From Verrucomicrobiota bacterium (GTDB lineage: Bacteria > Verrucomicrobiota > Verrucomicrobiia > Limisphaerales > J093), in contig JAAYVR010000284.1 of NCBI GenBank assembly GCA_012517065.1, forward strand, positions 1 through 34,245: a stretch of 34,245 nucleotides of DNA, read 5' to 3'. This document shows, piece after piece, positions 1 to 32,734 of this stretch; the first letter of the stretch is position 1, and each line of letters opens with the position of its first letter. The translations under genes were made by a program, and so were the position numbers. The notes beneath the pieces were generated by a model. That model was not told the DNA's origin, searched no databases, and was given only the letters and a program-made list of their open reading frames with translations.

Positions 1-240
1 GTGAGAAACCATTGGGATCAGCGGCGAGATCGAATGAGGCCATATGGGGACAGACACGTTGTTTTGTACGCCATGCCGATCCGGTTCCAGGCGCCTTGTT
101 TGTGCCGAAAGACAAAGCGGCGGCAAGCTGCCGCACTCCAAACGCTTCGCGCCTGCCAATGCCCACGGCATCCAAGCGCTTCGAGCCTTCCAGCGCCCAC
201 TGCATCCGCGGCAGCGCGTGAGAAACCATTGGGATCAGCG
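1..240 (+). repeat. Composite dispersed repeat with GGGGACAGACACG motif (copy 1)
   Basis: This stretch closely resembles 20811-20978. Positions 1-58 match the tail of that copy, ending in a GGGGACAGACACG box at 46-58. Positions about 110-235 match its body, including a hairpin GCGGCGG-CAAG-CTGCCGC at about 118-135 and a CATCCGCGGCAGCGCGTGA box near 204-222. The sequence GAAACCATTGGGATCAGCG occurs twice here, near 4-22 and 222-240, so the window probably opens inside a tandem pair of units. No credible gene is visible; the reading frames across it are products of the repeat. Such GGGGACAG boxes are often linked with REP/RAYT-type elements, but that link is inferred here. Confidence 0.7.
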
Positions 241-10423: not shown

Positions 10424-10488
10424 GGCAGAAAGATTCTTTGGGTGGCAGAAACATAATTGGCAGAAATATCGTGGGCAGAAAAATGGGG
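10424..10488. repeat. 15-bp-phased GGCAGAAAnAT repeat (locus 1)
   Basis: Four units beginning GGCAGAAA start at 10424, 10444, 10459 and 10474; the first spacing is 20 bases and the other two exactly 15. The run lies between the end of the redox operon (10526) and the fucosidase start (10337), both on the minus strand. The same family forms eight perfect-period units at 31413-31532. Unit sequences differ, but the GGCAGAAA core is kept. Confidence 0.8.
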
Positions 10489-26996: not shown

Positions 26997-27094
26997 CTTT
27001 TACTGCGGATTTGCTGAAACCAGTGGCGCGCCCGCTCCGCCAGAGTCCCGCCTTTAGGCGGCTTTGAAACGAGCATTCATCGGGCAGTAACGGC

Positions 27095-27204
27095 GTTGAA
27101 CGTTGTACGTTGAGGGTTGCACGTTGAACGTTCTCAAGAAGACGACCATGCTGATAAACCTATGAAAACGTTCAACGTACAACGTTCAACTTACAACGTT
27201 CAAC
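27095..27204. repeat. 38-bp inverted repeat built from GTTGAACGTT units
   Basis: The left arm (27095-27132) and right arm (27167-27204) match as an inverted repeat at 34 of 38 positions, with a 34-base loop. Each arm is itself made of roughly 10-bp GTTGAACGTT-like units, so it can fold into a long hairpin. It lies in the 615-base gap between the PEP-CTERM gene and the GspE-like gene. Confidence 0.85.
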
Positions 27205-27342
27205 TGGGCCGCGGGTTTGCCAACCCAGTGGTGTTGTCCGCCGCGGCTGTCAGAGTGCGGTGTTTAGGCGGGAAAGTTACATTTGGTTTGGAGTTGGCAC
27301 GGCAGGGTTGCGTCCAGTGGGGGGGCAGGTTGCGTTTCCCGG

Positions 27343-30027: not shown

Positions 30028-30720
30028 CTACTCCTCGATGGGTTTTGCGCCGTGAATGGCCAGAATTGCGTTAAGGCGCTGGCGTGGTGTCAGCCCTGGC
30101 AGTGCCGCAATTCTTTCCACAGCGAATCTGCTGAAGGCCACAAGGATTTGGTCGCGCAGTTCTCGTGGTGGGGTATTCCCGTCAAGCCGGACAAGGTATG
30201 GTTTGCGGATGGCAAGGAAGATGTCGCGAGACTTTGATTGTTGGGTGATGGTTTCGAAGTCGTTTGTGCGGCCGTCGCGATTTCCGACCCTTGCGAGCGC
30301 GGTTTGTGGGTCGAGGTCGATTATTATTAACAAGTTTGGTTCGATTGCGATGGTTTCGTTCTGTTTGAGCAGATCGTTGGGATCGAAACCGCGCGCGCCC
30401 TGGTAGGCGACGGTCGAGAAGTAATAGCGGTCTGTAATCACAATCTGGCCTGCCGACAGGGCGGGACGGATGACTTCATCGACATGCTGTCTCCGATCCT
30501 CCATGAACGCTTGGAGTTCTTCTTCCGGCGAGAGACGACCGTTTACGGCTGATTCGCGGAGTTTGCGTCCCCACGGGCCGTTGGTAGGTTCGTGGGTCAG
30601 GATGCAGTTCAGCCCGCGCTCGCGCAGGATGCGGCCCACTTCGCGTGCCTGGAGACTTTTACCTGCCCCATCGATGCCTTCGATGGCGATCAAGAATCCA
30701 CCTGGGATTGTTTGGTTCAT
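30028..30720 (-). CDS. tmk: Thymidylate kinase
   Basis: This 230-residue cytoplasmic enzyme phosphorylates dTMP to dTDP with ATP. The P-loop AIEGIDGAGKS lies at about 12-22. The DRY-type motif VITDRYYFSTVAYQGARGFD is near residue 95, and a LID-like Arg-rich stretch (ALARVGNRDGRTNDFE) is near 145. The protein is slightly longer than the usual 205-215. Its ATG at 30720 overlaps the ribE stop (ATGA), so it is translated with riboflavin synthase. The C-terminal RLNAILAIHGAKPIEE tail is extra. It converges on the glycosyltransferase gene across a 92-base gap without a clear terminator. Confidence 0.93.
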   Translation of the reverse strand: MNQTIPGGFLIAIEGIDGAGKSLQAREVGRILRERGLNCILTHEPTNGPWGRKLRESAVNGRLSPEEELQAFMEDRRQHVDEVIRPALSAGQIVITDRYYFSTVAYQGARGFDPNDLLKQNETIAIEPNLLIIIDLDPQTALARVGNRDGRTNDFETITQQSKSRDIFLAIRKPYLVRLDGNTPPRELRDQILVAFSRFAVERIAALPGLTPRQRLNAILAIHGAKPIEE

Positions 30721-31334
30721 TTGGGGCGGAGATCGATCTGCTGCAGCAACTGTGCGACGTATTTGCCGATGAGATCGGCCTCGAGGTTGACAAGCTGACC
30801 CGGTCTGCGCTCCCGGAGATTTGTCACTTCGAACGTGTGGGGTATGATCCAGATTCTGAAGCCCTTTGGCAGGACGTCGGCTATTGTAAGGCTGATGCCG
30901 TCAACTGCGATTGAACCTTTGTAGATTACGTATCGCATTACTTCCTGCGGCGCTTCAACTTCAAGGACCCAGTCTTGACCAACTTTTTCCCAGCGTGTGA
31001 TTCGACCGACTCCGTCGATGTGTCCAGTGACGAAGTGGCCGCCCATGGGCGCGGTGGCACGGAGCGAGCGTTCAAGGTTGACGAGCGAACCTGTACCAAG
31101 CTCGCGGAAGTTGGTTTTGTTCCATGTTTCCTGCAACAAATCGAACTTTGCCAGCTTGGATCGGCCTCGCAGTGGTGTTCCGACAACGGTAAGGCAACAA
31201 CCATTGACTGCGAGGCTGTCGCCAACCTTCAGCCCTTTTGCGCACAATTTGGGGCGGATTGTTAATACTATCGAGCGTTCGGTGGGCTCGATCGATTCCA
31301 CAACGCCTGTTTCTTCGACAATGCCTGTGAACAT
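30717..31334 (-). CDS. ribE: Riboflavin synthase, alpha chain
   Basis: This 205-residue enzyme makes riboflavin from two molecules of 6,7-dimethyl-8-ribityllumazine. It starts with the family hallmark MFTGIVEETGVV and has two lumazine-binding barrel repeats (about 1-95 and 96-195). LAVNGCCLTVV in the first and IAVDGISLTIADV in the second are the matching substrate-binding strands; GHFVTGHIDGVG opens the second. The ATG at 31334 was chosen over a longer frame because MFTGIVE is the universal start. It lies downstream of ribD across about 300 bases that hold a 15-bp repeat, and overlaps tmk. Confidence 0.96.
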   Translation of the reverse strand: MFTGIVEETGVVESIEPTERSIVLTIRPKLCAKGLKVGDSLAVNGCCLTVVGTPLRGRSKLAKFDLLQETWNKTNFRELGTGSLVNLERSLRATAPMGGHFVTGHIDGVGRITRWEKVGQDWVLEVEAPQEVMRYVIYKGSIAVDGISLTIADVLPKGFRIWIIPHTFEVTNLRERRPGQLVNLEADLIGKYVAQLLQQIDLRPK

Positions 31335-31412
31335 ACTTGAATGCTGTGTGCGGTACAAGGCGCACGCCAGACGGACTTCATAATCACAAAGTCGGGTTCA
31401 AGCAATAATATT

Positions 31413-31532
31413 GGCAGAAGGATTTTCGGCAGAAAGATCGTTAGCAGAAAGATTGCTGGCAGAAAAATGGGGGGCAGAAAAATAATTGGCAAAAAAATCA
31501 ATGGCAAAAAGATGGGGGGCAGAAAAATGGGG
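31413..31532. repeat. 15-bp-phased GGCAGAAAnAT repeat (locus 2)
   Basis: Eight units of exactly 15 bases start at 31413, 31428, 31443, 31458, 31473, 31488, 31503 and 31518. The core is GGCA(G/A)AAA(A/G)AT followed by a variable four-base tail (GGGG, AATT and others). The array fills the ribD-ribE gap (both minus strand). Read on the transcribed strand it is a pyrimidine-rich series of ATTTTTCTGCC-like boxes. A frame across it would encode a five-residue GRKxx repeat, which I regard as incidental. The same family is at 10424-10488. Confidence 0.9.
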
Positions 31533-31633
31533 GGGGCGGTTGGATGATTGGTCGATAGGCGAGGGTGACATGTCAAGTGTCGGCGGATTGTTCCGCGCTC
31601 TGGGCGACGCGGTGCGGGCGACCCGTCAGGCTG

Positions 31634-32734
31634 TCAGTACGCGAGGCGGGCCGAAAGAAGAAGGTCGGGGCCGATCCTGCGCCACTTCACAGCAGTTAGT
31701 TTGAGCACTTCGTGCCAGTTGCCTGCACCGAGGCCGGCGACTGATTTTGGCGCGTCGCGGCCGCCCAAAATCCTCGGGGCATAAAGAAAAACGACCCGAT
31801 GCGCGAGCTTGTTCGCGAGAAAGGAGGCGTTAACCTCGCCACCTCCCTCGACCAGGACGCTTGTGATTTCCTCTTCGCCCAGGCGATTCAAGAGCCAATG
31901 CAGATCAATCCTTCCGTTTTGCAGTGGCGCGCTCCACACAGTCACCTGCCGGCTCAGCGATTCGACTCGGCGATGAGGGGCATTTTCACCCACAACTATC
32001 AAAGTTGAATCGCGGAAGTCGTCTGAAACGAGTCGGGCCGACAGCGGCGTGCGCGCGTGGGTGTCGAGCACGACCCGTTTTGGAAGCCGGGATGCGGGCG
32101 GCAAAATTGTGCCGTCGGGATGACGCGGCGTGAGAGATGGGTTATCAGCCAACACAGTGTTAATGCCGACCAAGACGGCATCGACACCTCTTCGGATGCG
32201 CATTGAGTATGCTCGGGCAAGGGGGCCTGTGATCCACTTCGACTCGCCGTTTACGGTGGCGATTTTGCCGTCGAGGGTCATTGCTGCTTTAACAATGACC
32301 CATGGGGTTCTGTGGAGAATCCAGTGGTTCCATGATTCGTTAAGGCGCTCTGCTGAGTGTGCGAGGCAACCGGTGATCACTTCGATGCTGGCATGGCGGA
32401 GCAGGTCGATTCCCCTGCCGCTATGGCGAGGGTTTGGATCAACTGTTGCCATGACCACTCGCTTGATTCCGGCGGCGATGATTGCGTCTGTGCAAGGCGG
32501 TGTGCGGCCGTGGGTCGAGCATGGTTCGAGTGTAACGTACAACATCGAGCCTTCCGGGCTGATTCCTTTGGATTCTGCATCGCAGAGGGCTTCGATTTCT
32601 GCGTGTGGTTGGCCAGCGCGTTTATGCCAGCCTTTGCCAATGAGTTTCCCTGCCTTGACAAGCACTGCGCCGACCATCGGGTTTGGCGAGGTTCGGCCCC
32701 AGCCTTTTCTTGCGAGGCCCAAGGCAAGGCGCAT
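31634..32734 (-). CDS. ribD: Bifunctional riboflavin biosynthesis deaminase/reductase
   Basis: This two-domain cytoplasmic enzyme of about 366 residues deaminates and then reduces the first pyrimidine intermediate of riboflavin synthesis. The N-terminal deaminase has SPNPMVGAVLV, the zinc motif HAEIEAL with catalytic Glu, and EPCSTHGRTPPC with the zinc Cys residues. The reductase begins near residue 150 (VIVKAAMTLDGKIA) and has RRGVDAVLVGINTVLADNPSLT and LVEGGGEVNASFL. The start is uncertain: ATG at 32734 gives MRLALGLARKGWG. A GTG at 32743 or a TTG at 32797 would add a few residues, as in other RibD proteins. The open frame continues upstream into the next gene but is not coding there. Confidence 0.93.
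   Translation of the reverse strand: MRLALGLARKGWGRTSPNPMVGAVLVKAGKLIGKGWHKRAGQPHAEIEALCDAESKGISPEGSMLYVTLEPCSTHGRTPPCTDAIIAAGIKRVVMATVDPNPRHSGRGIDLLRHASIEVITGCLAHSAERLNESWNHWILHRTPWVIVKAAMTLDGKIATVNGESKWITGPLARAYSMRIRRGVDAVLVGINTVLADNPSLTPRHPDGTILPPASRLPKRVVLDTHARTPLSARLVSDDFRDSTLIVVGENAPHRRVESLSRQVTVWSAPLQNGRIDLHWLLNRLGEEEITSVLVEGGGEVNASFLANKLAHRVVFLYAPRILGGRDAPKSVAGLGAGNWHEVLKLTAVKWRRIGPDLLLSARLAY

What the first reader, a model, noticed from the sequence alone, without database searches (positions are those of the whole stretch)
31413..31532. Strict 15-bp-phased degenerate repeat in the ribD-ribE gap
Eight units keep an exact 15-base period while the last four bases of each unit vary freely. 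Exact phase with variable content suggests selection on spacing, or growth by slippage of 15-base units. A period of about 1.4 helical turns is unusual for protein arrays. In the transcript it would be a regular pyrimidine-rich series between two operon genes.
Basis: seen in the sequence. Interest (0 to 1): 0.6.

Follow-up and report, generated by a model that had tools for sequence, protein, structure and literature searches.

The report
Phased 15-bp intergenic DNA repeat family
The array between ribD and ribE is one arm of a previously unnamed, scattered gene-gap element, found in Verrucomicrobiota and related phyla, whose 15-bp units keep a fixed 11-bp word while the bases between words drift freely, which suggests that a still unknown protein binds one unit after another.

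Summary
Eight units of GGCARAAAnAT+N4 lie at exact 15-bp steps at 31413-31532 (no shuffle reproduces it). The same units occur as arrays across the genome (36 in the parts examined), with no excess of solo copies. A congener has them too, and planctomycetes, Verrucomicrobiota and Lentisphaerae have them patchily, usually as two units.

It is not simple slippage. Neighbouring units have unlike N4. Between the two congeners the word diverged 7-11%, the free positions 29-32% and the flank 26-27%; simulated detection bias does not explain the gap. Copy number does change (8 versus 3 at this locus).

The finding is larger than reported. Roughly a third to half of the arrays run into a conserved 54-bp core, in full copies followed by inverted units, making a roughly 106-bp imperfect palindrome. 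The focal array keeps eight left-arm units and a worn part of the core (31529-31575); no right arm is seen.

Arrays are intergenic (57/58) and favour convergent gaps (47% versus 16% expected), not co-directional ones. The GGCAG strand lies on the G-rich, presumed leading, strand in 29/36 (p=0.0003).

Best reading: a new MITE/BOX-like composite repeat whose arms are constrained, protein-bound arrays. The binder and mode of spread are unknown.

The parts
31413..31532 (+). left arm: eight 15-bp units, word GGCARAAAnAT plus N4 (last N4 ends at 31532)
31529..31575 (+). degenerate core of the composite element directly after the last unit (with 31503-31528 it matches positions 1-72 of the 106-position model); right, inverted arm not seen
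   Evidence: 30 bits, E 2e-6; core model
10424..10484 (+). second member in the window: one unit at 10424, then three units at 10444, 10459, 10474 at exact 15-bp steps; orthologous array with four units in the congener
30717..31334 (-). ribE (riboflavin synthase, PF00677), starts 78 bp from the array
31634..32734 (-). ribD (PF01872 + PF00383), stop codon 105 bp from the array; the start may lie further upstream (ORF runs to 33127)

Best explanation
The array is one arm of a dispersed, non-coding, MITE/BOX-like composite element: [15-bp direct units]n - 54-bp asymmetric core - [inverted 15-bp units]m, about 106 bp with two units a side. Shown: anatomy, dispersal, exact phase, constraint on the word, variable unit number, intergenic and convergent-gap placement, strand polarity by GC skew. 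Inferred: each unit is a site for one copy of a sequence-specific DNA-binding protein that assembles side by side with a fixed 15-bp step (about 1.4 helical turns) and a fixed direction, two adjacent units being the minimum; the element spread as a non-autonomous repeat, probably in a replication-linked way, and its arms gain or lose whole units afterwards. The focal copy has a long left arm, a worn core and no visible right arm.
For: Same unit family genome-wide with zero control hits. In G000 the unconditioned middle unit keeps GGCAGAAAnAT at 81-97% per base outside base 9, while base 9 and the N4 vary. Between congeners the word diverged 7-11%, free bases 29-32%, flank 26-27%; a simulation of neutral decay with the same detection filter gives means of 16-22% and never reaches 11% in 300 runs at each divergence tested. 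Solo words are not in excess (2 seen, 2.7 expected in 709 kb). Composite element: conserved downstream core, full alignment of 13 members including a Lentisphaerae MAG, genome-wide model hits (49 in G000, 57 in G001, 52 in G072, 2 in the Lentisphaerae genome, 0 in five other genomes of the family; some sites are counted on both strands). Arm pairing shows almost no compensatory support and the core no common fold, which points to double-stranded DNA read by protein. Polarity 29/36, p=0.0003, against 184/364 for control purine-rich intergenic words.
Against: No binder or transposase identified. No clean empty site and no consistent target-site duplication seen. At two orthologous gaps tested without prior knowledge of the outcome, the congener had no array and an unrelated gap sequence, so individual arrays are dispensable. 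Polarity is not seen in the pooled sample of other genomes (79/155), where paired inverted copies cancel out.
Confidence: 0.55

Rival explanations
1. Polar chromosome element: the arrays are host sites tied to replication or segregation direction (working like KOPS or a loading site), not parasitic repeats.
For: GGCAG strand on the G-rich strand in 29/36 arrays although coding bases are split almost evenly between the strands (160 vs 150 kb). In one Pirellulaceae genome arrays cluster in gene-poor stretches, several strongly skewed, with one orientation (C112 end all minus at skew -0.17 to -0.20; C180 start 15 plus, 1 minus at about +0.11). Word under constraint.
Against: Only some tens per genome, no excess of solo sites, absent from the other genera of the same family, absent at some orthologous loci; two regions of the same Pirellulaceae genome show the opposite orientation and several are mixed; replication strand is inferred from skew only.
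Confidence: 0.2
2. Purely parasitic MITE- or REP-like repeat; the arms matter only to a mobilising enzyme and have no host role. Strand bias comes from insertion into one template strand at the fork.
For: Convergent-gap bias and leading-strand bias are also reported for pneumococcal BOX/RUP/SPRITE (PMC3049150), and convergent/unidirectional intergenic placement for REPs (PMC3733652). Presence/absence differs between congeners; a contig junction differs between congeners at a copy; G000 lacks the right arm of a copy that is intact in G001.
Against: Constraint on the word at orthologous sites is not expected of dead copies; no fixed outer end or target-site duplication; no Y1 transposase adjacent and no units around the best Y1 copy.
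Confidence: 0.35
3. Neutral minisatellite grown by replication slippage.
For: Unit number differs between congeners (8/3, 7/3, 5/3, 4/6); a related 14-bp array in another genome has near-identical units.
Against: Neighbouring N4 barely more alike than shuffled; word slower than free bases.
Confidence: 0.08
4. RNA-level element in the ribD-ribE transcript: terminator, Rho loading site or stem-loop.
For: Enriched in convergent gaps, that is downstream of stop codons; in the genus 10 of 13 arrays in co-directional gaps read ATTTTTCTGCC in the transcript.
Against: Orientation in other genomes is mixed (19 vs 14); no terminator-like site in the gap; almost no compensatory pairing; no Rfam match; orientation follows GC skew.
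Confidence: 0.07

Closest known systems
BrickBuilt element of Porphyromonas gingivalis (PMC4596501)
   Same: Dispersed intergenic MITE-like repeat with a variable number of imperfect short direct repeats next to conserved non-repeated modules; many partial copies
   Different: There a 23-nt repeat lies between a leader and a tail with terminal inverted repeats and some target-site duplications; here 15-bp repeats form the two inverted arms around a core, and no fixed ends or duplications were found
BOX elements of Streptococcus pneumoniae (PMC3049150)
   Same: Composite, modular, variable number of an internal unit, convergent-gap and leading-strand bias
   Different: BOX is predicted to fold as RNA, causes target-site duplications and mirrors the coding strand bias; here the unit is 15 bp with an 11-bp constrained word and no conserved fold, and the strand bias does not mirror gene orientation
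REP/BIME elements, including GTAG and CGTC families in PVC bacteria (PMC3733652)
   Same: Dispersed, intergenic, convergent-biased, often in inverted pairs; present in PVC phyla
   Different: REP units are 20-40 bp palindromes with a GTAG or CGTC tag; here the unit is directional and non-palindromic, without the tag
KOPS / polar replication-strand motifs
   Same: Short G/A-rich words oriented with the leading strand (own knowledge)
   Different: KOPS are solo words in the hundreds, mostly in genes (own knowledge); here only arrays, tens per genome, outside genes

Membership tests
MITE | Short, non-coding, multi-copy, intergenic | tested here: met
   about 106 bp, tens of model hits in G000, 57/58 arrays intergenic
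MITE | Terminal inverted repeats | tested here: inconclusive
   Inverted arms present in about a dozen copies, but arm length varies and there is no fixed outer end
MITE | Target-site duplication | tested here: not met
   No consistent direct match outside the arms of 12 copies
MITE | Autonomous relative with a transposase and the same ends | not tested
   Only Y1 transposases were checked
REP/BIME with RAYT | Palindromic 20-40 bp unit with GTAG/CGTC tag | tested here: not met
   Unit GGCAGAAAnAT+N4 is directional, no tag
REP/BIME with RAYT | Y1 transposase gene flanked by the repeat | tested here: not met
   No unit near the best Y1 hit of G000; nearest array to a listed Y1 hit of G000 is about 4.7 kb away
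Minisatellite/VNTR by slippage | Unit number varies | tested here: met
Minisatellite/VNTR by slippage | Neighbouring units alike over the whole unit | tested here: not met
   N4 identity 0.43 vs 0.35 shuffled; word 0.85
KOPS-like polar motif | Strand polarity with replication | tested here: inconclusive
   29/36 by GC skew, p=0.0003; replication strand itself not measured, and no bias in the pooled other genomes
KOPS-like polar motif | Over-represented solo words | tested here: not met
   2 seen, 2.7 expected
Intrinsic terminator | G+C-rich hairpin followed by T run | tested here: not met
   0 in 31200-31750
Known structured RNA | Match to an Rfam family or covariation | tested here: not met

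The most novel reading that the evidence does not exclude
The 15-bp-phased arms are polar loading sites for a PVC-lineage DNA-binding protein that assembles one protomer per unit in a fixed direction relative to replication: a new class of chromosome-organisation or replication-linked element that spread as a repeat.
Probability: 0.2. Interest if true: 0.8.

Novelty: new variant of a known kind. Interest (0 to 1): 0.5.

Why it matters
Small dispersed repeats of bacteria are usually read as RNA hairpins or dead parasites. Here the units themselves are under measurable constraint with a fixed 15-bp register, they occur only as tandem pairs or more, and their direction follows the presumed replication strand. 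If true, that points to an unrecognised DNA-binding protein in Planctomycetota, Verrucomicrobiota and Lentisphaerota and gives a ready bait (the array) and ready controls (changed word, changed spacing) to find it.

Tried and rejected
Y1/RAYT mobilisation by adjacency: not adjacent. Rfam: no match. N4 pairing within inverted pairs as evidence for a hairpin: marginal (Watson-Crick p 0.055, with G-U p 0.005, 15 elements) and not borne out by the 13-member alignment. Single elements fold somewhat better than shuffles as DNA, as their inverted arms require, so this was not taken as evidence. Other-core arrays in 288 kb from nine other genomes of the same family: none of this AT-rich kind. Empty-site comparison: orthologous gaps differ throughout, so no clean insertion. 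Polarity in pooled named genomes: none. Phylum sample with the full 106-bp model under strict filters: only the own genome and one weak hit. Literature searches for the word or for such arrays in PVC bacteria found no description; only open-access papers are held.

Full report
The observation. The eight units at 31413-31532 are there, in exact 15-bp register. Shuffles give 0.10 words and no two-unit matches, against 9 and 9 observed. A shorter array of the same family lies at 10424-10484.

Whose genome. The window is contig C147 of a 5.26-Mb draft of 298 contigs. Its congener G001 shares a contig length and array sequence with Verrucomicrobiota bacterium A05DMB-I-23 (L102/L235, 4717 bp), so the host is taken to be a member of Verrucomicrobiota (inference).

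A dispersed family. Two exact units occur 26 times in G000 and 35 times in G001, and 128 and 104 times with up to three mismatches; the reversed control pattern gives none. Overlapping pairs of one array are counted separately. Twelve of 320 genomes of the order have exact pairs; the other genera of the same family have none. There 150 of 162 arrays have just two units, in some cases with an inverted pair nearby at a variable distance of 8-53 bp. A few single hits in unrelated genomes are compatible with the roughly one chance match expected by my own estimate, or with composition.

Phase and constraint. In G000 same-strand distances between units are 93 at 15, 3 at 14 and 12 at 16. If units p and p+30 match, the unit between them, not used for detection, reads GGCAGAAAnATsgkT, with 81-97% agreement at the word positions and freedom at base 9 and weak preferences in the last four. 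Neighbouring N4 are little more alike than shuffled (0.43 against 0.35). Eleven arrays are at orthologous sites in the congener, several with differing unit number (8/3 at ribD-ribE, 7/3, 5/3, 4/6). Over aligned units the word differs at 7-11%, free bases at 29-32%, flanks at 26-27% (Fisher p 7e-9 or lower). Because arrays were found by their word, I simulated neutral decay with the same filter: it predicts means of 16-22% and reached 11% in none of 300 runs at any tested divergence. So the word is constrained and the spacer is not. This rests on copies that persisted; at two loci tested without knowing the outcome the congener had no array and an unrelated gap sequence.

The larger element. 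Downstream of the last unit many arrays share a core, GAGGTTGGGGCGGATGTTYGGCGT and beyond (about 25 of 58 arrays). Full copies have inverted units 52-56 bp further on. Thirteen copies, one from a Lentisphaerae MAG, align over 106 positions. A sequence model built from them finds 49 matches in G000, 57 in G001, 52 in G072 (another family of the order), 4 in G052, 2 in the Lentisphaerae genome and none in five other genomes of the own family; some sites are counted on both strands. The focal array scores 30 bits over positions 1-72, so it is a left arm plus a worn core; no right arm follows. In one pair of orthologues the full element in G001 faces a G000 copy that lacks the right part (L382 against L197). 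In another, two G000 contigs, C173 and C259, each carrying a copy, correspond to the two sides of a single G001 copy, as expected if a rearrangement ran through the element (assembly error not excluded). Of 13 predicted arm pairs only one shows a kept two-sided change, the covariation term is unfavourable, and the core has no common fold.

Placement. 57 of 58 arrays in the two congeners are outside predicted genes (coding fraction 0.73). Convergent gaps hold 47% of arrays against 16% of gap bases; in named genomes 24% against 9%. Gene prediction was done with a simple codon-usage script, so single cases may be wrong.

Polarity. The GGCAG strand is the G-rich strand at third codon positions, corrected for gene direction, in 28/36 arrays with 4-kb flanks and 29/36 with contig-scale sequence (p=0.0012 and 0.0003). 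Purine-rich control words in the same gaps show none (184/364). G001 gives 15/22 (p=0.13; Wilcoxon 0.019). Core-bearing copies give 16/21 (p=0.027). The pooled named genomes show none (79/155). In a Pirellulaceae genome (G320) arrays cluster in gene-poor stretches, several strongly skewed, mostly with the expected strand, with two regions opposite and some mixed. The replication strand is inferred from skew, and this was one of several features examined.

Mechanism. A directional word repeated at a strict step, minimum two, without an excess of solo copies, without conserved fold or covariation, outside genes, is best explained by a protein that binds double-stranded DNA one unit at a time and contacts its neighbour. 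The element's dispersal, partial copies and convergent-gap bias resemble BOX, BrickBuilt and REP elements (PMC3049150, PMC4596501, PMC3733652), so spread as a non-autonomous repeat is likely. Whether the constraint serves the host or a mobilising enzyme is open.

Noticed in passing
window 27094-27205: Facing 7/14-bp repeat blocks (CGTTGAA)n and (AACGTTC)n, an inverted pair of short tandem arrays; similar words occur around a Y1 transposase gene of the same genome (L273).
   Followed up: no
L215:3000-3600: Gap next to the nine-unit array holds other dispersed repeats: a stretch of about 200 bp and one of about 54 bp each match many places in the congener.
   Followed up: no
L064, around 1-220 (minus strand): Two 15-bp units GGCAAAAAGATGGAT run into more than ten 14-bp units GGCTAAAGATGRGT up to the contig end, near a possible gene start: a sister array with another period.
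   Followed up: partly
L057:1705, L058:1373, L084:1501: Facing GGCAAAGGAATG-type units at a 14-bp step with inverted copies, in genomes that also carry the 15-bp family.
   Followed up: no
L146, L074, L117, L125, L170: In Rhodopirellula and Stieleria the two-unit array is followed about 20 bp on by a second 15-bp-spaced pair with another word, GACARGAAAAT.
   Followed up: no
L299:9657-13374: Six similar non-coding blocks, spaced about 640-930 bp, each with one array in the same orientation, mixed with simple-sequence words.
   Followed up: partly
L204, L213 and L360: G000 contigs C173 and C259 both carry a full element and match the two sides of one element in G001: a possible rearrangement through the repeat.
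   Followed up: partly
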